Shown one piece after another: positions 10,147 through 34,940 of a stretch of DNA of 64,000 bases. Position 1 is the first letter of the stretch. Every line of letters begins with the position of its first letter. The stretch comes from Psychromonas ossibalaenae ATCC BAA-1528 (GTDB taxonomy: Bacteria > Pseudomonadota > Gammaproteobacteria > Enterobacterales > Psychromonadaceae). The notes below the pieces were generated by a model that saw only the letters and a program-made list of their open reading frames with translations, searched no databases and was not told the origin of the DNA. The position numbers were made by a program, and so were the translations under genes. The stretch is taken from contig NZ_KB906976.1 in assembly GCF_000381745.1 (NCBI RefSeq), positions 1 through 64,000 of the forward strand. Direction: 5' to 3'.

Positions 10147-12858
10147 CTACCCCATGCTTTGAATTTCCGGATGATAAGCTGCATCGGAATTATTCTGAAG
10201 CAGCGCCTTAATTTTATGCGCAACCCGTGCACAGTTATTTTTACTCTTTTCCAGTTCCCACCCGATAAGGTAAGTCTGCGTTAAGCATAAGTACCCCGCC
10301 AGCATCTCTTTGTCTGCAAACATGCCCAGGCGGATGACATCCTGCTCATAAGCGAAATATTCAGCTTCATAACCTGCTTCACCGTATATACCGGCCGGAT
10401 CCCAGTCTTTATATAAAATGCAGCTGACCTGTTCGCAAAAACGTTTCGTTCGGGCATCTAAATTTCCGAGATCAAAAGCGGGCAGCTCGCTGACACTGTT
10501 TTTTATCAGCTGATGAATGCCCGACTCTGTCATTTGTCCTAATACAGGCTGATTAACATAAATAAAATTTTCGTTACTCATACGGCCAGGCATCTGCCCT
10601 TGTGAGTTGGTTAAATCAAACAGGTAGCCGACTAAATCTCCTTTCTGATCCGCAGCATTATAATCGACACAAACTACTTTATCACTCTGCACCTGCGGCA
10701 TGCCGCTCAGCGTGTAATGACCTACCACTACAGGCCGCGTCTGACGCTCATTGTGCAGCAGCCCCGACAGCTCCTGTTCGGGAATATCAGCCAGCTGCTC
10801 CGGAGGCACTTGCGCAATACTACGGTAGGTTTGAACCTGATCACGCCACCATGCTGTGCGAATATGACGACGCTCACAACCGCCTTTATCAAAAAAACTG
10901 TGTCCCTGAGGCAGTTCGATTTCAGGTCCTTTAAGCAGAGTTTCACATAGCTCATAAAGCTCGTGAGCGGGATCAAACGCGTCATTCCAGTGATGCTCTT
11001 TTAAACTATTATCGCTATTAAGATACGGCAGTAAACGGGTTATAGACTGCTGATTCCAGCACGCATGAATACAGCGCACCGCACCAAAATCCATAAACAG
11101 AGGCAGCGTTTTAAACCACTTGATCCATTTTTTATATTCCAGGGAGTCTTCGACCATCTGCTCTAAAAACAGTGCATGCTGACGCTGATTTTTATCTGAA
11201 TGCGCACGTGCCCAACAATCCGCCTTACCCGTGCGTTTTTTTAATGTCCAGCCGATAGCATTGAATTCATGGTTACCCATCACGCACCAGGCAAGTCCGC
11301 TATCACACAGACGTTTAACCTGTTTTAACGTATTTACATGATCGGCGCCTGATTCATTATGGTTATCAATAAGATCACCAACAAATACCACTTTGCCGCG
11401 GCTAAAAGCACTGTTCGGATCATGCTCGACAAAATCAGCATATGTTAACAGCTCATTAAGCTTTTTATACTGACCATGCACGTCTCCGATGAACAGCAGC
11501 TGTCTGGTCTCATCTGAGTGCAGACAATAGTTTACTCCGTCCAGCTTCCTGTCCGTAAGCTCAGTTATACGTGCCAGCCAGGCCGTAATTGTTCCCGTCT
11601 CGCTCATACTTGCCAGCAGACCGTTACAAAAACGATCGCCGCGTACCGCACGGGTTATAAATTTCAGGCAGGTAATATAATCAGCCTGTGCTAACCACGG
11701 TTCAAGATTGCCTTCGCCGTACAACTGCACATGCTGTGCATATCCCGGCAGTTCCTCACTGCTCCAGTCCCAGTTGAGAATAAATCCATAATCATGAAAT
11801 GCCGGATAAAGAGAAGCAGTGAACTCATGTACAAGTTTTCTTGAGCCGTCTGTCAGTTTTTTCCGCTGCTTTTCTGCCTCGCGGATAAACGCAGCACAAT
11901 GCGAGTGCAGCGGACAGGCAGCCAGAAGCTCAGCTGTCTGCAGTAGTTTTGCATACCAGGCTAACTTCTCTAGCCAGTGTTCAGGTAAACCGTTTAAGTC
12001 GTAATAAGCGCCGGCAATTTGCCCGTAAACTGCCGCTGTAGTATCTGCATCATCACCAAGATTTGCTGCTAACAACGCCCCCTGTTCAAAAGTATCGCTA
12101 TGTGCAAAGCACCATAGGGCGGCTTCAAGAGACTGTACAACAAATCCGCAGCCGTAGATTTGTTCACGGCTTTTATTTATAAAACTGCCCTGAACAACAG
12201 CTGCCGTTTCTGGAGATAACGGAGCCGGAAAATTTTTCTGCAGCGCCGCAAATAAAGCATGTTTGTCCGCATAGGTTTCAGCAAAGAGATGGTATAAAAG
12301 CCAGGCGGTAACCTGACAAGCTTCAATACATCGCAGTTCTGCATGGGTTGTTATTGAGCTTTCCACCGCCATCTGCAAAGCAGTTTCAATGCTGACACCT
12401 TTAGCTGCACTGTAAAAAATGGCTATCGGTGCAAGACGCATCAGACTGCCGTTACCAGCTGAATTCTCTTCGCTTGAACCAGCATTCGCATTGCCGTTTT
12501 TCTGGTAACGATTTAAGGCTTGTGCAACTGTATTACCGATATCAAAACAGCTGCCGGTTACCGAATTCTCACCAAATTCTTTCCAACGCAGATAACGTTC
12601 CATCTGATCTTCTGCGCAGTGCCTCCCCTTGGCCAGCAGGCTGTCTGCCAGACAGAGCGCCATTGAAGTATCATCCGTCCATTCACCTGCTTTAAGGTTA
12701 AATGGGCCGCCGCCGATCATATCGGTTAACGGCTGGTAACTGTCTTTGCTTTGAAACTCTAATGTGGTACCGAGCGCATCGCCGAGTGCCAGGCCAAGCA
12801 GCGATGCCTGAGCACGAGATTCGAATTGTGCTGAAGTTTTAAAAAATAAATTAGTCAA
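10147..12858 (-). CDS. ADP-ribosylglycohydrolase - DUF6508 - metallophosphoesterase fusion protein
   Basis: A 903-aa cytoplasmic protein. Residues about 15-320 are a DraG-type ADP-ribosylglycohydrolase: LLGLALGDALG, GEWTDDTSMALCLADSLL with the metal-binding TDDT, and the second metal site NLGDDADTTAAVYGQIAGA. Residues about 340-445 look like DUF6508 (YITCLKFITRAVRGDRFCNG...), known as a companion of this hydrolase family. Residues about 450-730 are a calcineurin-like phosphoesterase with GDVHGQ, VGDLIDN, GNHEFN and the later GHYTLSG; its motif style is that of PP1/ApaH-type enzymes. The last about 170 residues are helical and unassigned. Expected role: removal of ADP-ribose from a target plus hydrolysis of a phosphoester, possibly on the same nucleotide product. 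Both metal centres appear complete. It is a stand-alone gene. Confidence 0.85.
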   Translation of the reverse strand: MTNLFFKTSAQFESRAQASLLGLALGDALGTTLEFQSKDSYQPLTDMIGGGPFNLKAGEWTDDTSMALCLADSLLAKGRHCAEDQMERYLRWKEFGENSVTGSCFDIGNTVAQALNRYQKNGNANAGSSEENSAGNGSLMRLAPIAIFYSAAKGVSIETALQMAVESSITTHAELRCIEACQVTAWLLYHLFAETYADKHALFAALQKNFPAPLSPETAAVVQGSFINKSREQIYGCGFVVQSLEAALWCFAHSDTFEQGALLAANLGDDADTTAAVYGQIAGAYYDLNGLPEHWLEKLAWYAKLLQTAELLAACPLHSHCAAFIREAEKQRKKLTDGSRKLVHEFTASLYPAFHDYGFILNWDWSSEELPGYAQHVQLYGEGNLEPWLAQADYITCLKFITRAVRGDRFCNGLLASMSETGTITAWLARITELTDRKLDGVNYCLHSDETRQLLFIGDVHGQYKKLNELLTYADFVEHDPNSAFSRGKVVFVGDLIDNHNESGADHVNTLKQVKRLCDSGLAWCVMGNHEFNAIGWTLKKRTGKADCWARAHSDKNQRQHALFLEQMVEDSLEYKKWIKWFKTLPLFMDFGAVRCIHACWNQQSITRLLPYLNSDNSLKEHHWNDAFDPAHELYELCETLLKGPEIELPQGHSFFDKGGCERRHIRTAWWRDQVQTYRSIAQVPPEQLADIPEQELSGLLHNERQTRPVVVGHYTLSGMPQVQSDKVVCVDYNAADQKGDLVGYLFDLTNSQGQMPGRMSNENFIYVNQPVLGQMTESGIHQLIKNSVSELPAFDLGNLDARTKRFCEQVSCILYKDWDPAGIYGEAGYEAEYFAYEQDVIRLGMFADKEMLAGYLCLTQTYLIGWELEKSKNNCARVAHKIKALLQNNSDAAYHPEIQSMG

Positions 12859-26196: not shown

Positions 26197-29100
26197 CTAC
26201 TGCCACGCTGTTTTACCATCTAAAGGTATAGTACGTTCAAAGGGTAGAAACGGCATGGTATCTCTAGGCACGTAGAAATGTTTACCGAGAGACTCTAAGT
26301 CATAAGTTGCAACCTGAGCAACGGCTTTCTCCGAAACCTCAATTCCCCATGCTGCAAACTGTTCCCGCCAATCTTTATCGGTCAAAAATGACAAACTAAC
26401 CAGCATAAAGTCATTACCGTTTAAACGTGTTTTTGACTCATAAAGGCTCATACCTAAGCGATCTTTATTAGCAAGCCAGTCTGATGTATTTCTCATCTCC
26501 CTAGCATGTAAGTAAAGTAGCGTGAAGGCATCAAAACCATGCTCCGTTAACTCTAAATACTCAAGCGCATAAACGATCTGCATATATAAGGCTAACTGGT
26601 CAATGTCTCCTTTGGTCCACAATTTACTCTTCACATACGCTGTTGGATCATCGCTATTCTGCCCCTCCTGCATCCAGGCAAAAATCTTAGGCATGGAAGA
26701 AGCTGTTTTAGTTGAACTCGGGTTGTGAAACTTGCGCATATGCATAGGGAAAATATTATTAGACACTTCCGTTGATAAACCGCCATAAACCTTTAGTTCA
26801 CCAATCTGTAAGTTATGCCCTATTTCATGTCCCTCAAGCCAGCCATCAGCTCTAAAGTATCCTGCAGAATCATAGGGATTTCCTGAACAACCTACACCAC
26901 AATGTGAAGCAAAGTCATGATTAGCACGCTGCGTAATAGAACGTTTATGCCAATTTTCATTAAAACAGTCTAAACCTTTCTCTATACAGATTTTTGTGAC
27001 TGCCGGAGTCAGTTCAATACCATTGCCGACAAAACCACCTAAAGAACTGATAGAGCCAACCGTAGTGCTGATAATGTTATCAAACATTTTCTGCACATCC
27101 CCCTGATAATACTCTTCGACCGTCTTAACCATATGCAGTCGCTGTGAATACATCTGAAATCCAGGTACATCCACATATACCCAGCTATACGGTGTTGCAG
27201 CTAAATCAGATCTAAAACTATCAATATTATCCATGGTCCCGACTAGATGCTGACCGACATTAGTGAAGTTAATTTCGACTTCTTCCTGTAGTGTTGCATT
27301 AATCTGCACAGGACCGCCGTAAGGCGAAGTTAAGGTGAGTTTTTCACCCGGATTAACCGTAAAAGAAGGTGATCTTAAGTACTTAGGTCTCTGGTATTTC
27401 GTACCCCATTCCTTCGTTGAACCGGTACGCATGGTATTCATAAATACCTTCACTGACTGTGTCGCATCACTGCTAAGTTCAACAGTAAACGGGACACCGG
27501 GATGTGCATAAGCACCTGTCGGATGCCAGCTTACGCCTGCTCGCGGCTGCAGTAGACTCTGATAAGTCTCCAGCAGGTAACTTGGATCAACAGGCTCTGC
27601 GAAGTTGCCCAGGTCACCTTGTGCAGGCGCTAAGTTACGGTTGTAATATACCGTATGATCGGCAAACCAGGCACGCAGCCAGGGAGTCTGATCACCTGCA
27701 CTAGATGATAAGCGATAAGCGATCTGCGTACGGTAAATATCCCCCAATAAAATCATTGATTTCAGCACGTCTGAACTATGCTCACTCTGGAATAACGGAA
27801 TATTTTTAACGTCACTCGCAGTCAGTCTGCTTCTTAAGGTTTTCACTAAACTGTCAAACTGCTCCAGGAATTCAGGTGTTTTACCTTCCGCAAGTACAAA
27901 ATCATAACTTTCATTCTGCAGGCTGCGGTTAAGTGCTTTGAATCGAATTAATGAGCTGTACAGTGAACTCTGCAGCGCCGCATCAGACAAATCGTCAGGA
28001 TCAAAAGCATTTGCCGTATCAGCAATCTTCTTGTTACTAGTACCGTAAACATAACCCAGCTCAGCTAAAAGCTGGTTAACCAAAGCATCTGAGCCTTTAT
28101 ACTGGCTGTTATTGGTAAAGATAACCGGCATTTCAGGATAAGTGTGGATCATCTCCAGAATATCTTCGACCTCGTGCTCATAGAGACCTTTACCGCCGAT
28201 CACGAGAAGGTCCGGCTGCATAAATTTATTAAAAGAGACTTCTTTGATCTGCAGCGGTGCTCCGTCAGCACCAACACTCAGGTCAACAGGGTTTTTACCG
28301 ACAGACATTACAGACAGCGGTATCCAGGACAACTGTGTGTCGTTTTTATTAGTCAGCCACTTTATCAAGCGGTAAAAACTTTCATCTGATAACCAGTTCA
28401 GCCCTGCAGTATCCGCAAAAGATCGCCTGTCATTAGCAATATTAGCGGCAGCAAGGATCTGATTTTGTTCACCAATCACCAGCGGGAAAGCAGGAACAGC
28501 AGAGCCCCATACATTCGGCTCAATAAAATTAGCCGTGCCCGCGGCAGTTAAATCAATCAACTCACCGTCAAAGATAAAGTCTGCAGCTTCCTGCGCCTGC
28601 TCAAGCCGCATACTATTATCAAGACTGCTGTTGATCTGCTGATGCAGGACATCAATATCATCAATCGCACTGATATCCCCCGTGTTTAATGCCAGCTGCA
28701 TTACATCAGAATCAGGACGCGGTTTGATATAAGAGAAATCTCCCACCCCGCTGCCGTCATCTTCAGTAATGTAGGTGATCTGTTTCGCCTCAACCTGTTC
28801 ACTTTGAGCAGTCTGTACATTACTGTTAATGCTGTCTAACAGCTGGCTTTGTAAAAACGGCAGCTGATGCTGATCATCAATAGCAATTGAATCATCTAAC
28901 TGCAGCGCATAACTGTCGCGCAGCAGATGAATAAGACTGATCGCATCAAAACCATCAGCGTCAAAGGGATCCACAGCCAGTTCATTAAGTTTCTCAATAC
29001 TGGCATTTAAGTAGGTCATCGGATCAACAAATTCAGCTTGATATGCAGGCCCCCGTCCTTCACTCAGAGTAAAGTTAAAAGAGTCATGCTGCAGGTTAAC

Positions 29101-31452
29101 GAACATTTCCTGTACAGAGTCAAGTGCATCATCATCTAGTTTATTTAAAGCAAGGTTTAACATCTCAGTGCTGCTCTCCCACACAGCACTATCCTGTTTA
29201 AAGTAATTATGTCCAGATGAGCGGTAACCGAAATCACTCACGATCTGTTGTGCCTGCTCGCTTAACTTCCAGTCCCAACTGCCGTAATGAGTAAACATTA
29301 GCGGCACATCAGGGAATAACTGATGCTGGCGGCTCACCAAGTCTGTCCATATTTCATTTTGACTGGTCTGCATAATAATCAGATCCGGCTTGACTCCTTC
29401 CTGCCACTCCTGCCAGGAAACCACATTCAGTGAAATACCCTGATCGACAGCCCAGGCATTCAGGTGTTTTTGAGTGCCGCTGTTATTACCGGCAATCAGC
29501 ACCGTTACCTCTTCCCATTTTAACTGGGTTAATGAGGTATTCATTAACCAGCTCATCAACTGAGAAACGGCGGCTTTATCCAGACGATTCAGCGGTTCAT
29601 AGCCGAATGCCGCCGAACGCTTACCCGGCGCCGCATTTGCAGAAGCAAATACAGAGTTTTTCTCGCCAACAATCAATGGAAAAGCATTCGGTCCCCAGGC
29701 TGATTCAGACTTTAGAGGTTCAATAAAACGCGCATTTTTTCCTGGATTGAAATTTACTGTTTCAGAAAAAATATAGTTAATAGTTTGTGTTGCCTTTGCG
29801 TTGGGCAGCAGGGCAAATGCTTTGTTTAAATCATCATAAATAATATCGCTGCCAGTGAAATTTTTCACATCTCTATCCAGCAGCGCTTTTTCCGCCATTT
29901 CACTAAAACCATTGACGAGACTAAATAAAGGTGCTTCTACAAAGATAGTTGAATCTAAAGCCAGTACATTTTTAGCAAAATAGCGATTAATAAAGGCTTG
30001 TTTATCACCGCTGTCAAGGCCCAGCGGCAGCGGCGTCAATTCTGCTTTCACCCGCGCCAGTTCAGTAAACAGCATCTGCAGTTTAGTCGGACTGTTGGGA
30101 TACTCAACTGCTTTCTGATTAGTCGCTATGGATACAATACCAGCGCCGTACAGTTCGGCGAAATTAGCATCATTACCGTCAACCAGTTCAAAGGTATCTG
30201 TTCCGGCGGCCATATTGGTTACCGCCGCTTCAACAGCATCCAAATCCGAATATATCGAATTCTGCAGTACACGATTTATCTGTTCCTGCGGCGGCAGCTC
30301 AACAACCTTGTCCTGACTGTGATAATTTCCTGCGCCGTCGGACTGAAACTTCATGCCGAACTGCAGCAGAAAGTCATTCATATGCGCTGTTCCGGCAGTG
30401 TATTGATAATGATAAATAAGCACACTGGTTTCCGGGAAGCGGGTTAAACGATCCTGGAGCATCTGCAGGGAAGCCTGATCTGCGTTAGACTTAACAACAA
30501 CCAGATCAATATGTTTTTCCGGATCTATTTCAGTTAATGCCTGCTGGCTGAATGCTATGTCACGCTCTGCCGCCCAGGTTTCAATATTTGTTCCGTTATA
30601 ACTTCCTAAAGTCGCGACACTCAGCGAATCTGCTATCGTTCCCTCATTGCCAGCCGTTAGCCAGCTGATCAGGCTGTTTAAATTCGGTGCGGCAAGAGAT
30701 TTAAAAACATCACCGGAAAAGGCCGCCACTTTATTACCTTCAACGGTAGATACAGCAGCCTGCGTTTTTTTACTTTTATCAGCACTGATTATCGGCAGAG
30801 CGATGCTATCCCACAGACTGTTTCCTTTTTGCAGAGAAATAAAAGCTGAATGACGGCCGGGATTATAATTGACTGGATCCGGGAAAATCTCCGGAATAAT
30901 TTTGTTTACATGCGCAGAGCCGAGTGGCTCCAGCTCTACAAAAATATCCTGATAAATACCTTCTGCCTGAGCAAGCAGTTCATCAGCCGGCGTCGGCACA
31001 AACGTGACCTGCAGGTTATCGATATTAGGACCCAGCGACTTTAATGTTTCCAGGTTAATAGTGTTGCTGCCCTGCTCCAGGCTGAAAGTAACGGCTTCAC
31101 TCTGCTCCCAGGTTCTCCAGTTAGTCGTTGCGGGAAACTGATAAGTACTGGCTTCACTGTCATTGGCACTTAGCTGCATATGACGGTCATTTTTACTCGC
31201 ATAACGGAAACTAAGCTGGTAATCCCCCTGCTTTGCAATATCAAACGTCCAAGAAATTACATCTCCCTTTCTCGTTTCTGTTTTGATATAGGCAGCGCCG
31301 CTATAGCCCTGATAATGGTTTTTTAATACCGCTCCAGTAAGAATCGCATCTTCCGCACCATAAGTCAGCATCGAAGTAGAGTTGTTATATGCAGTGGCCG
31401 GCATTGCCGCAGTTATAGAGAGCGCTAATAGCGTTCGTTTAAATTTATTCAT
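26197..31452 (-). CDS. Secreted M60-family (mucinase-like) metalloprotease with triple N-terminal repeat
   Basis: A 1751-aa exported protein with signal peptide (MNKFKRTLLALSITAAMPATA). Residues about 25-150 resemble a CBM35/6-type carbohydrate-binding domain. An ImpA-like unit recurs three times near residues 194, 570 and 970 (FNPG(K/R)..., W...AFPL(I/V)(I/V)GE, then an RR/KRSAAF-type segment and a LISWL/LMSWL helix). The M60 domain follows (about 1290-1650), with the zinc motif HEIGHNLQIG and downstream Glu in GGLSTEVSNN near residue 1541. M60 proteases such as SslE, AcfD and ImpA cut mucin-type O-glycoproteins. There is no lipobox, so it is probably soluble or retained by binding. AAAGGA precedes the ATG, and phased repeats lie upstream. 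Larger than SslE and AcfD (about 1500 aa). Confidence 0.88.
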   Translation of the reverse strand: MNKFKRTLLALSITAAMPATAYNNSTSMLTYGAEDAILTGAVLKNHYQGYSGAAYIKTETRKGDVISWTFDIAKQGDYQLSFRYASKNDRHMQLSANDSEASTYQFPATTNWRTWEQSEAVTFSLEQGSNTINLETLKSLGPNIDNLQVTFVPTPADELLAQAEGIYQDIFVELEPLGSAHVNKIIPEIFPDPVNYNPGRHSAFISLQKGNSLWDSIALPIISADKSKKTQAAVSTVEGNKVAAFSGDVFKSLAAPNLNSLISWLTAGNEGTIADSLSVATLGSYNGTNIETWAAERDIAFSQQALTEIDPEKHIDLVVVKSNADQASLQMLQDRLTRFPETSVLIYHYQYTAGTAHMNDFLLQFGMKFQSDGAGNYHSQDKVVELPPQEQINRVLQNSIYSDLDAVEAAVTNMAAGTDTFELVDGNDANFAELYGAGIVSIATNQKAVEYPNSPTKLQMLFTELARVKAELTPLPLGLDSGDKQAFINRYFAKNVLALDSTIFVEAPLFSLVNGFSEMAEKALLDRDVKNFTGSDIIYDDLNKAFALLPNAKATQTINYIFSETVNFNPGKNARFIEPLKSESAWGPNAFPLIVGEKNSVFASANAAPGKRSAAFGYEPLNRLDKAAVSQLMSWLMNTSLTQLKWEEVTVLIAGNNSGTQKHLNAWAVDQGISLNVVSWQEWQEGVKPDLIIMQTSQNEIWTDLVSRQHQLFPDVPLMFTHYGSWDWKLSEQAQQIVSDFGYRSSGHNYFKQDSAVWESSTEMLNLALNKLDDDALDSVQEMFVNLQHDSFNFTLSEGRGPAYQAEFVDPMTYLNASIEKLNELAVDPFDADGFDAISLIHLLRDSYALQLDDSIAIDDQHQLPFLQSQLLDSINSNVQTAQSEQVEAKQITYITEDDGSGVGDFSYIKPRPDSDVMQLALNTGDISAIDDIDVLHQQINSSLDNSMRLEQAQEAADFIFDGELIDLTAAGTANFIEPNVWGSAVPAFPLVIGEQNQILAAANIANDRRSFADTAGLNWLSDESFYRLIKWLTNKNDTQLSWIPLSVMSVGKNPVDLSVGADGAPLQIKEVSFNKFMQPDLLVIGGKGLYEHEVEDILEMIHTYPEMPVIFTNNSQYKGSDALVNQLLAELGYVYGTSNKKIADTANAFDPDDLSDAALQSSLYSSLIRFKALNRSLQNESYDFVLAEGKTPEFLEQFDSLVKTLRSRLTASDVKNIPLFQSEHSSDVLKSMILLGDIYRTQIAYRLSSSAGDQTPWLRAWFADHTVYYNRNLAPAQGDLGNFAEPVDPSYLLETYQSLLQPRAGVSWHPTGAYAHPGVPFTVELSSDATQSVKVFMNTMRTGSTKEWGTKYQRPKYLRSPSFTVNPGEKLTLTSPYGGPVQINATLQEEVEINFTNVGQHLVGTMDNIDSFRSDLAATPYSWVYVDVPGFQMYSQRLHMVKTVEEYYQGDVQKMFDNIISTTVGSISSLGGFVGNGIELTPAVTKICIEKGLDCFNENWHKRSITQRANHDFASHCGVGCSGNPYDSAGYFRADGWLEGHEIGHNLQIGELKVYGGLSTEVSNNIFPMHMRKFHNPSSTKTASSMPKIFAWMQEGQNSDDPTAYVKSKLWTKGDIDQLALYMQIVYALEYLELTEHGFDAFTLLYLHAREMRNTSDWLANKDRLGMSLYESKTRLNGNDFMLVSLSFLTDKDWREQFAAWGIEVSEKAVAQVATYDLESLGKHFYVPRDTMPFLPFERTIPLDGKTAWQ

Positions 31453-31942: not shown

Positions 31943-33370
31943 CTATTTAAGCTTTTCCCGATCAGCGTTAAACGGAAACATCAGCTCAGCACACAACCCT
32001 CCCTCAGATCGGTTGCTTAAGGTTAACTGACCACCGTATGACTGAATAAGTGAACGGGTAATTGCTAAACCTAAACCCACACTCGACGCATTAGTATCAC
32101 GCGCTTTATCTAAACGAACAAAAGGTTTAAGTACTTCCTGGAGCTTGTCCTCAGTAATACCCGGCCCGCTATCCAGTACCTGAATAATCAGTTTATTACC
32201 AGAATATCTGCATAAAATAGAAATACAGGCCTGTTCCCCTCCTGCATACTGCAGACTATTGTTAATTAAATTCTCGATCATACGGCGAAGATTAATGGGA
32301 GGAAGACTGCAGGTACCTATACTGTCTTGATCATATTTTAAATTTTTAATATTACGATCTTGGTAATCATCAACAATTGTCTGAATTAAACTGTCTAAAT
32401 TGATCTTCTGAGACGCTTCAAGATTGCTTTGATCCTGTGCGAACGCCAGAGTGGCGGCAATCATCTTTTCCATATTCAGCAGCGTATTATGCATATTGGT
32501 TTTATCTTCACTGTCTTCGATAAACTCTAACTGCAGACGCAGACTGGTAATAGGAGTACGTAGATCATGGGAAATAGCCGCCATCATTTTAGTACGGTCA
32601 TTTATGTATTCCTGCAGCTGACGCTGCATTTTATTAAATGCCTCAATAGTCGGCTTAATATCGCTGGGCACATCGAGTTTAAGAGGCGTGAAGTCCCGAT
32701 GTGTCCCCATGCGGTCAGCCGCATCAGCAAGATCTTTCACCGGTTTTAAAGAGTTTTTTATTGTCCACAACATTAACAAAGTCGTTAAAAGAGCAATAAA
32801 TAACAACGACAGAAGCAGATACCATGACCACTGCAGTGATTTTTCATCAATCGAAGAGGTGAAATTCAGCCACTTTCCAGAGCCTAACTGCACAGAGCCG
32901 GAAACGACCGGCAGATATCCCATAGACTGCCTGTGCATGCCCTGCATACCTTTGCCGCCGTGCCGCCCTCTAGCATGTCCCTTATTCGAATGTCCATTAT
33001 GGCGTTTATTGTTAACCGCTCTAAGGCGGACATCAACAGCCTGTACTCTGGCAAACTGTGCCCGCTGCGCTTTAGAAAGCTTTAATAACTGGTGCTTTGA
33101 AACCATAGGCTGGTGAGCAATAGACAGCTGCAGATCTGCTCCCTGACTGGCTTCAATAATATTACCATGCAGTGTCTCCGGCACCCCTGACAGTATTTCT
33201 ACCAGGGCCAGTACACGGTTTACTGTTACTGAGCTGGAAATACTGCTGATATTCTGCTGCCGTTCATTGGTCACTAACAGCGCAGTCAGCAGGGTCCCGA
33301 TACTAAAACCTAATAGCATAATCAAACTAATCTGCAGCAGTAAACTTTTGCTTTTAAACCAGTTAGACAT
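31943..33370 (-). CDS. Sensor histidine kinase with His/Met-rich periplasmic loop
   Basis: A 475-aa kinase: TM1 about 10-33, periplasmic domain 34-182, TM2 about 183-204, HAMP about 205-258, HisKA with AAISHDLRTPITSLR (H268), and an ATPase domain with NLINNSLQYAG, DSGPGI and SVGLGLAIT. The periplasmic part contains an unusual segment, about residues 120-152, with five His and several Met, Gly and Arg residues (RHNGHSNKGHARGRHGGKGM). This suggests metal, perhaps copper, sensing. I choose the ATG at 33370, since GAGG precedes it and it overlaps the regulator stop by 8 bp. Its partner is the adjacent response regulator. Confidence 0.9.
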   Translation of the reverse strand: MSNWFKSKSLLLQISLIMLLGFSIGTLLTALLVTNERQQNISSISSSVTVNRVLALVEILSGVPETLHGNIIEASQGADLQLSIAHQPMVSKHQLLKLSKAQRAQFARVQAVDVRLRAVNNKRHNGHSNKGHARGRHGGKGMQGMHRQSMGYLPVVSGSVQLGSGKWLNFTSSIDEKSLQWSWYLLLSLLFIALLTTLLMLWTIKNSLKPVKDLADAADRMGTHRDFTPLKLDVPSDIKPTIEAFNKMQRQLQEYINDRTKMMAAISHDLRTPITSLRLQLEFIEDSEDKTNMHNTLLNMEKMIAATLAFAQDQSNLEASQKINLDSLIQTIVDDYQDRNIKNLKYDQDSIGTCSLPPINLRRMIENLINNSLQYAGGEQACISILCRYSGNKLIIQVLDSGPGITEDKLQEVLKPFVRLDKARDTNASSVGLGLAITRSLIQSYGGQLTLSNRSEGGLCAELMFPFNADREKLK

Positions 33371-34094
33371 TTTCAACCTCACAGCTGAACTGATAGCCGC
33401 CACCCCAGATGGTTTTAATAAAACACGGTTTCTTCGGGTCCGGTTCAATCTTTTTACGTAAGCGGCTGATTAACGTATCAATTGAGCGGTCATAAACATC
33501 CCCGCCCCGCCCTTTGGCTAAATTCAATAAAACCTCACGACTAAGCACCACATGCGGATGACTGACAAATGCATGTAACAGCGAAAACTCTGTTGAGGTT
33601 AGCGAAATCAAACAGTTATCAGGACTGATAAGCTCTCTAGTGGTGGTATCCAATGACCAGGATGCAAAAAGGTACCTGACCGGTGAATCAGCTTCGGCTA
33701 TATCGCCAGATGCAGCTGGTATGCTGTAATGCCTTCTTAATACCGCTTTAATGCGTGCCAGCAGTTCTCGCGGATTAAACGGCTTTGCCAGATAATCATC
33801 CGCACCTAATTCTAACCCGACAATTTTATCTAATTCTTCAGCAAGTGCCGTGAGCATGATCACCGGTACATTAGAGACAGCGCGCAGCTCTCGGCATAAA
33901 GTCAGTCCGTCTTTACCGGGCATCATTAAATCAAGCACAATCAAATCAACACTGTGATGCTTAAGAAATACTTCCATTTCGTGACCATCGGCAGCGGTCT
34001 GAACACGATAGCCATGCTGAGTTAAAAAACGTTTCAGTAGATTACGAATATCAGCATGGTCATCAACCACTAAGATTCGATTATTTGATTCCAT
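33363..34094 (-). CDS. OmpR/PhoB-family response regulator
   Basis: A 243-aa regulator with receiver domain (ILVVDDHADIRNLLKRFL, phospho-acceptor in LIVLDLMMPGKDG, conserved KPFNPRELLARI) and a C-terminal winged helix (LTSTEFSLLHAFVSHPHVVLSREVLL...DRSIDTLISRLRKKIE). OmpR-family regulators usually bind tandem direct repeats with 10-11-bp period. Such repeats lie upstream of the nearby M60 gene, and a 45-bp palindrome lies just upstream of this gene. It forms an operon with the kinase. Confidence 0.92.
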   Translation of the reverse strand: MESNNRILVVDDHADIRNLLKRFLTQHGYRVQTAADGHEMEVFLKHHSVDLIVLDLMMPGKDGLTLCRELRAVSNVPVIMLTALAEELDKIVGLELGADDYLAKPFNPRELLARIKAVLRRHYSIPAASGDIAEADSPVRYLFASWSLDTTTRELISPDNCLISLTSTEFSLLHAFVSHPHVVLSREVLLNLAKGRGGDVYDRSIDTLISRLRKKIEPDPKKPCFIKTIWGGGYQFSCEVENV

Positions 34095-34152
34095 AAATTA
34101 TGCTCTTTGCTTCTCTATATGTCTTCACTATACACCAGTATTCATACGCAAG

Positions 34153-34197
34153 TATTTCAAAGTATGTCAGTTTTTAAAACTGACATACTTTGAAATA
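34153..34197. promoter_or_regulatory. 45-bp perfect palindrome in the divergent promoter region
   Basis: A 22-nt arm beginning TATTTCAAAGTATGTCAG is repeated as its exact reverse complement around a single central T. It lies 58 bp upstream of the response-regulator start and 78 bp upstream of the Met-rich protein start. Since both genes diverge from here it is unlikely to be an ordinary terminator; an operator or cruciform is more likely. Confidence 0.7.
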
Positions 34198-34275
34198 AAG
34201 TAAAAGATCAGCGACACACTTTCCCGCTATTTTTTTGCTTTAATTAAAGCAGGAACAACAGAGGAGGAAAAAATT

Positions 34276-34659
34276 ATGAAAACTAAAACACTAATAGCAG
34301 CATTTATTATTGCCCTGTCACTACCGGCAGCAGCAGCCGCCCGCGGGCACCACGGCTGGCATATGAACCAGCAGTACCAGAACGATGCGGGGCAGATGCA
34401 GCCGGGCATGGGCAGACACGCAAACATGCAGCGCCAAAATAACTGTCCGAGACAAACCGCCGATTCACAGCAGGCAGGCCAGATGCAGCCGGGAATGGGT
34501 AGAAAAGCAAATATGCAGCACAATATTAACTGTCCGAGACAAACCGCGAATTCACAGCAGGTGGGCCAGATGCAGCCGGGAATGGGCAGAAACGCTAACA
34601 TGCAGCGCAAAAATAACTGTCCCTATGCAGCACCTCAGCCGTCAGGTGATGCACAATGA
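34276..34659 (+). CDS. Secreted Met/Cys-rich tandem-repeat protein, candidate metal binder
   Basis: A 127-aa protein with a signal peptide (MKTKTLIAAFIIALSLPAAAAA). The mature part begins with a His-rich stretch (RGHHGWHM) and then three tandem 29-residue repeats of the form QMQPGMGRxANMQxxxNCP, each with three Met and one Cys; the repeats are 87 bp at DNA level (from 34393, 34480 and 34567). Met- and His-rich periplasmic proteins typically bind Cu(I) or other soft metals. A very strong ribosome site (GAGGAGG) precedes the ATG. It is divergent from the two-component genes, whose sensor has a similar His/Met-rich segment, and is followed by a SHOCT protein. I know no named family for the repeat. 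Confidence 0.75.
   Translation: MKTKTLIAAFIIALSLPAAAAARGHHGWHMNQQYQNDAGQMQPGMGRHANMQRQNNCPRQTADSQQAGQMQPGMGRKANMQHNINCPRQTANSQQVGQMQPGMGRNANMQRKNNCPYAAPQPSGDAQ
34393..34640 (+). repeat. Three tandem 87-bp coding repeats
   Basis: Copies begin at 34393, 34480 and 34567 with CAGATGCAGCCGGG(A/C)ATGGG. They encode the 29-aa repeats. The third copy diverges after about 55 bp. High DNA identity suggests recent duplication and possible copy-number variation. Confidence 0.85.
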
Positions 34660-34685
34660 GTATAACGCAATGTTTAGGAGGTAAT

Positions 34686-34892
34686 ATGTTCGGCTGGCAT
34701 GGAATGGGATTCGGCATGGGATTATCTACGCTGATATTCTGGATCTTAATGATATTAGCTGTTGTATGGTTAGTTCGACACCTGCGGAGTGAGAAAAGCA
34801 CATCCGACTCTGCACTAGAAATAGCAAAGAGGCGTTTTGCACAAGGCGAAATTGATAAAGACCAGTTCGATGAAATTAAACGACATATTTAA
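34686..34892 (+). CDS. SHOCT-domain small membrane protein
   Basis: A 68-aa protein: a Met/Gly/His-rich N-terminus (MFGWHGMGFGMG), one membrane helix (LSTLIFWILMILAVVWLV) and a C-terminal SHOCT motif (ALEIAKRRFAQGEIDKDQFDEIKRHI). AGGAGG before this ATG selects it over an earlier in-frame ATG at 34656 that overlaps the previous stop. Similar small SHOCT membrane proteins often sit in heavy-metal resistance loci. It lies 26 bp after the Met-rich repeat gene, so they form one operon. Confidence 0.85.
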   Translation: MFGWHGMGFGMGLSTLIFWILMILAVVWLVRHLRSEKSTSDSALEIAKRRFAQGEIDKDQFDEIKRHI

Positions 34893-34918
34893 GTGAACAA
34901 TAACAACTCACGACTCAA

Positions 34919-34940
34919 GGCGCTTGCTCTAAGCGCCTTT
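34919..34940 (+). terminator. Terminator of the Met-rich / SHOCT operon
   Basis: AAGGCGCTT and AAGCGCCTT form a perfect 9-bp stem with a short loop; only a short U-run follows. Confidence 0.6.

What the first reader, a model, noticed from the sequence alone, without database searches (positions are those of the whole stretch)
33363..34940. Candidate undescribed metal-sensing module: His/Met-rich kinase, OmpR regulator, secreted Met/Cys repeat protein and SHOCT peptide
The kinase has five His and several Met in a short periplasmic stretch (about residues 120-152). Divergently, a signal-peptide protein carries three 29-aa repeats each with three Met and one Cys, followed by a Met/His/Gly-rich SHOCT membrane protein. 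Soft-metal ligands recur in all three exported segments. No classical copper ATPase or CusCBA genes are nearby. Inference: the repeat protein is a periplasmic copper/silver buffer, co-ligand or sensor accessory controlled by the adjacent two-component system, which may also control the zinc protease gene downstream.
Basis: partly seen in the sequence, partly recalled or inferred. Interest (0 to 1): 0.75.

Follow-up and report, generated by a model that had tools for sequence, protein, structure and literature searches.

The report
Stress-sensor operon with methionine-rich secreted protein
A bacterium carries a small sensor system that probably switches on its own genes and a neighbouring secreted, methionine-rich protein; some relatives have a different, folded-type protein in the same slot, so the methionine-rich protein may be a soft-metal or oxidant 'sponge', but nothing has been tested.

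Summary
In detail: an OmpR/EnvZ-type two-component system (RR 33363-34094, HK 31943-33370) faces an exported protein with tandem 29-aa Met/Cys repeats (34276-34659) and a SHOCT peptide (34686-34892). I examined 48 loci with the same kinase ectodomain. A Met/His-rich exported gene stands opposite the RR in 43 of 48, and the intergenic region carries a direct-repeat box (TGTCAAAGTRTGTCA, at least 13/15 in 47 of 48). In two genomes without a neighbouring gene, the box lies upstream of an unlinked LTXXQ (Spy/CpxP-type) gene. Control of the divergent operon is therefore likely (inferred, about 0.85). In seven same-genus genomes the target is an LTXXQ protein; in the window clade, Celerinatantimonas, Photobacterium and family f6 it is a low-complexity Met-rich protein with no Pfam domain. 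Met content of the kinase's disordered loop tracks that of its target, but this leans on two lineages. Copper/silver is plausible (CusA near the system in one relative, DUF411 in another), yet the genome's own cus operon carries no box, and in four relatives the box fronts a putative multidrug-type pump; oxidant sink and general envelope stress are not excluded. Control of the M60 protease is not supported. Verdict: new variant of a known kind.

The parts
31943..33370 (-). EnvZ/RstB/CpxA-type sensor histidine kinase, 475 aa, overlapping the RR stop
   Evidence: HisKA, HATPase_c, HAMP; EnvZ 181 bits vs cut-off 415; CpxA 134.5 vs 486; below every cut-off of the 25 models shown
32906..33025 (-). 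His/Met-rich loop of the kinase ectodomain (residues 116-155), mostly predicted disordered
   Evidence: composition; hypervariable in alignment; pLDDT below 50 over residues 123-138 and 142-150
33363..34094 (-). OmpR-family response regulator, 243 aa
   Evidence: OmpR 281.5 bits, below cut-off 331
34127..34133 (-). Candidate -10 (GTATAGT on the minus strand) of the regulator promoter; three of its columns invariant in 15 aligned loci
   Evidence: inference
34155..34195 (.). Palindrome made of two inverted copies of the operator-like box TTTCAAAGTATGTCAG (34155-34170 + and 34180-34195 -)
   Evidence: the only exact copies of the 16-mer in the genome
34213..34227 (+). Degenerate further box (GACACACTTTCCCGC), aligned with GACAAACTCCTGACA of relatives
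34236..34244 (+). Extended -10-like TGCTTTAAT ahead of the repeat gene; four of its columns invariant in 15 aligned loci
   Evidence: inference
34276..34659 (+). Exported Met/Gln/Asn-rich repeat protein, 127 aa, signal peptide to about residue 22 (by eye)
   Evidence: no Pfam family over cut-off and no NCBIfam family
34390..34620 (+). Tandem 29-aa Met/Cys repeats (two full units, one partial)
34686..34892 (+). SHOCT-domain membrane peptide (ORF open from 34656; SD AGGAGGT favours ATG 34686)
   Evidence: homologues at 6 of 48 loci

Best explanation
An autoregulated envelope-stress two-component system with Cpx-like layout. The kinase senses a periplasmic stress; the phosphorylated regulator binds direct-repeat boxes in the 181-bp divergent promoter and drives both its own operon and the repeat-SHOCT operon (inferred from conserved boxes and promoter-like elements). 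The induced protein is an exported, probably disordered Met-rich sponge in the slot where other members of the genus have an LTXXQ protein (direction of the change not established); it most likely binds Cu(I)/Ag(I) through Met thioethers (inferred) and, by lowering free ligand, closes a feedback loop on the kinase, whose own disordered Met/His loop is exposed to the same ligand (speculative). The SHOCT peptide is a membrane accessory of unknown role. Control of the divergent operon about 0.85; Cu/Ag as physiological ligand about 0.5; feedback on the kinase about 0.3.
For: Module: RR and HK on one strand in 48 of 48 loci, within 100 bp in 47 (in G006 the kinase is split). The Met/His-rich gene is opposite the RR in 43 of 48: 41 within 300 bp, 2 (G021, G006) with the SHOCT gene in between; 2 are separated by other ORFs (G307, G379), 2 unlinked (G011, G004), 1 at a contig end (G016). 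Box at least 13/15 in 47 of 48, 12/15 in G198; 0 of 100 shuffles per locus reach it (2 of 100 for the same Celerinatantimonas locus). In G011 and G004 the box also lies about 110 bp upstream of an unlinked LTXXQ gene. Window clade: box duplicated as an inverted repeat in 3 of 3. Met co-variation of kinase loop and target: rho 0.66, n=45; independent contrasts r 0.61, p 1e-4; loop Met does not correlate with Met in the rest of the kinase, RR Met or locus GC. Metal neighbours: CusA (1104 bits, cut-off 701) and a Met-repeat protein near the system in G006, a DUF411 protein after the kinase in G021.
Against: No metal data exist. The co-variation weakens to r 0.36 (p 0.012) without Photobacterium and r 0.18 (p 0.12) without Photobacterium, G021 and G006; target Met also correlates weakly with Met in the rest of the kinase (rho 0.33, p 0.03). 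The genome's own cus operon has no box at 12/15 or better within the 15 kb fetched. In G008, G010, G014 and G016 the box also precedes an RND adaptor gene; in G008, the one tested, the pump is multidrug-type, not metal-type, which suits general envelope stress better than copper. The box is not found at 12 more distant, mostly alphaproteobacterial loci except perhaps one. The repeats lack both SilE motifs and any CxxC, MxM or MxxM. G001's protein has only 1 Cys.
Confidence: 0.5

Rival explanations
1. General envelope-stress system (Cpx/Bae-like): it senses misfolded or damaged envelope and the target is a CpxP/Spy-like accessory; the Met-rich protein is a diverged accessory and metals are only one of many inducers.
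For: Layout matches cpxRA-cpxP (recalled). The slot protein is LTXXQ in 5 of 19 slot proteins scanned with Pfam, all 5 in the window's genus; the box fronts unlinked LTXXQ genes in G011 and G004 and an RND adaptor gene in G008, G010, G014 and G016, MdtA/MuxA-like in G008.
Against: The genome has a separate RR/HK pair with a Spy/CpxP-like gene that scores best as CpxR/CpxA (263 vs cut-off 341, 408 vs 486); the window clade target has no LTXXQ domain and gained tandem Met repeats; the pump box is absent in the window clade (0 of 3).
Confidence: 0.28
2. Oxidant sink: the Met residues are sacrificial scavengers of HOCl or peroxide, recycled by MsrPQ, as described for MrpX and the C3564/C3565-C3566-C3568 system of uropathogenic E. 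coli.
For: A TCS controlling Msr-type genes and a Met-rich peptide is in print (PMC8550376, passages read); MsrP is encoded in 10 of 10 genomes tested, the window's included.
Against: MsrP is not linked to this locus (contig C52 versus C10) and is in all 10 tested genomes, so it does not discriminate.
Confidence: 0.15
3. The exported repeat protein has no ligand role; it is a fast-evolving low-complexity protein (adhesion, surface or structural) whose Met content is drift in a repeat.
For: Rapid change: the 29-aa repeats are seen only in the window genome and, rearranged, in G023; none in G001.
Against: Met-rich exported proteins with different sequences occur in the same slot in four groups, which however cluster on the tree, under a conserved promoter region.
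Confidence: 0.07

Closest known systems
CpxRA-CpxP (and Spy) of enterobacteria
   Same: OmpR-family regulator plus EnvZ/CpxA-like kinase with a divergently transcribed exported accessory gene (cpx layout recalled); 5 same-genus relatives carry an LTXXQ protein in that slot
   Different: Kinase and regulator score far below the CpxA/CpxR cut-offs; the genome has a better Cpx candidate elsewhere, itself below cut-off; the box is TGTCA-N5-TGTCA, not the CpxR box GTAAA-N5-GTAAA (recalled); the window target lacks LTXXQ
CopMRS of Synechocystis (PMC4335983, passages read)
   Same: Two-component system controlling a periplasmic/extracellular protein with marked Met and His residues encoded next to it
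   Different: There copM lies in one operon with copRS and binds Cu(I) experimentally; here the gene is divergent and untested; the two proteins were not compared by a tool
SilE/PcoE with SilRS/PcoRS (PMC5008109, passages read)
   Same: Small exported Met/His-bearing 'sponge' encoded near a two-component system
   Different: SilE motifs MxxHxxxxxHxxM and HxxMxxxHxxM are absent; 5 His versus 10; no HME-RND gene on the window's contig
MrpX-type Met-rich oxidant sinks, e.g. C3568 under C3564/C3565 (PMC8550376, passages read)
   Same: TCS-controlled small Met-rich peptide
   Different: MsrP is on another contig
BaeSR with Spy and MdtABC (recalled)
   Same: In G008, G010 and G014 the box fronts both an LTXXQ gene and an RND adaptor gene, MdtA/MuxA-like in G008
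   Different: RR and HK score as OmpR/EnvZ rather than BaeR/BaeS; pump box absent in the window clade

Membership tests
CpxRA-CpxP | Kinase and regulator over the curated CpxA/CpxR cut-offs | tested here: not met
   CpxA 134.5 vs 486, CpxR 177.2 vs 341
CpxRA-CpxP | Divergent gene encodes an LTXXQ (PF07813) protein | tested here: not met
   No LTXXQ in window, G023, G001 proteins; met in 5 of 19 slot proteins scanned
SilE/PcoE | Repeated Met/His motifs MxxHxxxxxHxxM and HxxMxxxHxxM | tested here: not met
   motifs
SilE/PcoE or CopM | Binds Ag+ or Cu+ | not testable with these tools
   needs purified protein
Heavy-metal TCS CusSR/CzcSR/SilSR/CopSR | Over TIGR01386/TIGR01387 cut-offs | tested here: not met
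   122.2 vs 292.55 and 142.2 vs 279.2
Heavy-metal TCS CusSR/CzcSR/SilSR/CopSR | Controls an HME-RND efflux operon | tested here: inconclusive
   Own cus operon carries no box at 12/15 or better; CusA lies near the system only in G006 and no box with at most 1 mismatch is listed near that operon; other binding sites are not excluded
MrpX/MsrPQ module | msrPQ linked to the Met-rich gene | tested here: not met
   MsrP on contig C52, locus on C10
SHOCT proteins | PF09851 over gathering score | tested here: met
   28.8 vs 27 bits

The most novel reading that the evidence does not exclude
Sensor and sponge co-evolve: the kinase's disordered ectodomain loop and the protein that it induces carry matched soft-ligand (Met) content, so that both read the same Cu(I)/Ag(I) or oxidant pool. 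The induced Met-rich repeat protein competes with the loop and resets the kinase: a titration feedback in which a disordered sponge does the job that a folded CpxP/Spy-type protein does in relatives.
Probability: 0.25. Interest if true: 0.7.

Novelty: new variant of a known kind. Interest (0 to 1): 0.48.

Why it matters
It defines a two-component family, seen here in Aeromonadaceae and several other gammaproteobacterial groups, with a predicted operator and target slot; I saw no description of it in the listings of the searches made. If the Met-rich proteins are ligand sponges, the slot difference between LTXXQ proteins and Met-rich low-complexity proteins is a natural experiment on how a periplasmic accessory can be exchanged, and the matched Met content of sensor loop and target makes the sensed ligand directly testable.

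Tried and rejected
Control of the M60 protease or the BCCT transporter by the box: rejected. Genome-wide regulon in the window genome: the 16-mer with up to 3 mismatches gives 58 hits against 61 for the control pattern, no excess beyond the two exact copies; with the looser pattern a further exact match lies inside a coding region of the nap cluster, in G000 and G023. RND-pump box: 25 of 27 genomes have the adaptor at E 1e-40; of the 23 tested, 4 of 12 kinase-bearing and 0 of 11 without a kinase match have the box (G047 and G104 not tested). One search read the wrong flank for minus-strand hits and was replaced. Fold of the kinase ectodomain: AlphaFold2 mean pLDDT 69, best Foldseek match E 0.54 (WalK ectodomain), so no fold is claimed. 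His-His co-variation between loop and target: none (clade rho 0.02). The clade-level Met rho of 0.98 over 8 clades rests on clades that I chose and on partly truncated Aeromonas sequences; one search used full ones and I rely on the tree-corrected values. Rows dropped: G016 (no target, contig end), G255 (loop motif not found), G307 (target pattern missed); four weak partial hits of family f3 were set aside from all counts. Of the 80 named loci only Photobacterium was added to the 48; some others are the same contigs as G loci, the rest were not counted. Genus g35 (Aeromonas) makes up 20 of the 48 loci, hence the thinned test (r 0.66, p 2e-4; without Photobacterium r 0.41, p 0.024). The box consensus was read from these same loci, so its shuffle test shows conservation, not independent proof of binding.
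Full report
WHAT IS THERE. The window carries a kinase (31943-33370, -), an OmpR-family regulator (33363-34094, -) and, divergently, a 127-aa exported protein (34276-34659, +) and a SHOCT peptide. The exported protein has two full 29-aa repeats and a partial third, 87-bp period, 86% matches. Only Met is clearly over-represented in its mature part (10 of 105, P 3.5e-4; His P 0.08, Cys P 0.12). The kinase's 5-His stretch is real but only mildly unusual (41 of 2000 shuffles). No protein family covers the repeat protein. The SHOCT peptide probably starts at ATG 34686, behind AGGAGGT.

HOW WIDESPREAD. The repeat protein is found only in the window genome and two of the same genus (4 of 99 genomes match at E 0.01; the fourth, G037, E 0.003 with two stops inside, is set aside). 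In G001 (36% identity) the 29-aa repeat is absent. The kinase ectodomain is found in 18 of 148 genomes searched, own included, and, as a profile, in 51 of 394 genomes of the order, four of those only as weak partial hits (family f3). f25 includes Aeromonas and f10 Celerinatantimonas (contig lengths agree); that f1, the window's genus, is Psychromonas is only my guess.

MODULE. RR and HK lie on one strand in 48 of 48 loci. A Met/His-rich gene with a signal-like start (by eye) stands opposite the RR in 43 of 48: 41 within 300 bp, 2 (G021, G006) at 441 bp with the SHOCT gene in between; in G379 a transposase-like ORF and in G307 other ORFs separate them by over 1 kb, in G011 and G004 no such gene is adjacent, and G016 ends at the contig edge. 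Of 19 slot proteins scanned with Pfam, 5 are LTXXQ (PF07813) proteins (G014, G021, G008, G010, G006), all of the window's genus; the window clade (3), Photobacterium, Celerinatantimonas (2), f6 (2) and Aeromonadaceae (6) hit nothing over cut-off. The Aeromonadaceae proteins have a His/Met-rich front and a helical-looking rear (by eye). The Photobacterium protein has 19 Met in 89 aa. A SHOCT gene accompanies 6 of 48 loci: the window clade, G021, G006 and Photobacterium.

OPERATOR. The intergenic region carries TGTCAAAGTRTGTCA, a 10-bp direct repeat as is usual for OmpR-family sites (recalled), at least 13/15 in 47 of 48 loci and 12/15 in G198, mostly 54-62 bp from the RR start; 0 of 100 shuffles per locus reach it (2 of 100 for the G198 contig). 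At 12 more distant, mostly alphaproteobacterial loci the best score is 9-12 and only L096 beats all shuffles, so the box belongs to the gammaproteobacterial group. The alignment of 15 loci shows further invariant columns, compatible with an RR -10 and an extended -10 for the target (inference). In the window clade the box is present as two inverted copies, 3 of 3. In G011 and G004 the box also stands about 110 bp upstream of the only LTXXQ gene found there: where the target is elsewhere, the box is there too. In G008, G010, G014 and G016 it also stands between ackA and an RND adaptor gene (family test in G008 only: adaptor TIGR01730, permease closest to multidrug models, 898 bits against 241 for CusA/CzcA). 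The window clade, G006, G021, G004, G087 and G258 lack it there, as do 11 of 11 same-genus genomes without a kinase match. In the window genome the only exact copies of the 16-mer are the two at this locus.

SENSOR. The ectodomain has a conserved frame and a hypervariable loop where the His/Met lie; AlphaFold2 leaves most of that loop under pLDDT 50 and no solved structure matches significantly. Met fraction in the loop tracks Met fraction in the target (n=45, rho 0.66; contrasts r 0.61, p 1e-4), whereas loop Met does not track Met in the rest of the kinase, the RR, or GC; target Met does track Met in the rest of the kinase weakly (rho 0.33, p 0.03). Dropping Photobacterium gives r 0.36 (p 0.012); dropping G021 and G006 as well gives r 0.18 (p 0.12). 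I regard this as suggestive. The tree (FastTree, midpoint root, no support values looked at) puts the window clade's system with Celerinatantimonas and f6 rather than with other members of its own genus, so transfer or paralogy is possible, and which slot type came first is open.

METAL OR NOT. For: in G006 a CusA gene (1104 bits, cut-off 701) and a Met-repeat protein lie within 1.5 kb of the kinase and a DsbD-like gene lies beyond the target; in G021 a DUF411 protein follows the kinase; in G047 a ZntA-type ATPase lies about 1.4 kb away. I looked for such neighbours only in the loci printed, not systematically. Against: the window genome's own cus operon (CusA 1294 bits) has no box, and kinase and regulator score far below the heavy-metal TCS models. 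MsrP is in 10 of 10 genomes tested and, in the window genome, unlinked, so the oxidant-sink rival is neither helped nor excluded. Copper and Met oxidation are linked in E. coli through CusSR control of msrPQ (PMC9302797, passages), so the two readings may overlap.

COMPARISON. In layout the system works like CpxRA-CpxP; in the kind of target it works like CopM/CopRS (PMC4335983, passages), SilE (PMC5008109, passages), or the Met-rich C3568 under C3564/C3565 (PMC8550376, passages). It fails tested features of the Cpx, SilE, heavy-metal-TCS and MrpX/MsrPQ families, and the metal binding that marks CopM could not be tested, so I do not file it as a member of any. SHOCT has no settled function (PMC3581485, abstract and outline). 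Searches for a described equivalent showed none in their listings, but the library is open-access only and listings were capped.

VERDICT. A real, conserved regulatory module; control of the repeat operon by the adjacent system is likely, its ligand open. New variant of a known kind.

Noticed in passing
26197-31452 (-): 1751-aa ImpA-family M60 metalloprotease (NF038322, 638 bits over cut-off 250) with a CBM35-like N-terminal part; adjoins the kinase also in G023 (82% identity) but carries no box.
   Followed up: partly
10147-12858 (-): 903-aa ORF whose first about 310 residues resemble ADP-ribosylarginine hydrolase Tri1 (308.5 bits, below cut-off 490); the remaining residues matched nothing in NCBIfam at 1e-30.
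   Followed up: no
L319:4154-4936 (window genome, contig C2): A second Met/His repeat protein (Met 13.8%, His 8.1%) next to the genome's CusA/CusB genes; hits no Pfam or NCBIfam family.
   Followed up: partly
L234, L235, L236, L237: The same box lies between ackA and an RND adaptor gene in four genomes of the genus.
   Followed up: yes
L048:4155-5557: The kinase of G006 is split into two overlapping ORFs; described only, not joined.
   Followed up: no
L248:1679-2812 and L294:2700-3760: A transposase-like ORF (G379) or other ORFs (G307) sit between regulator and target gene, leaving the box with the regulator.
   Followed up: partly
L110:1552-2127: In an alphaproteobacterial relative the divergent exported protein shows EF-hand-like DxDGDG motifs (by eye), hinting that the slot can hold other ligand binders.
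   Followed up: no
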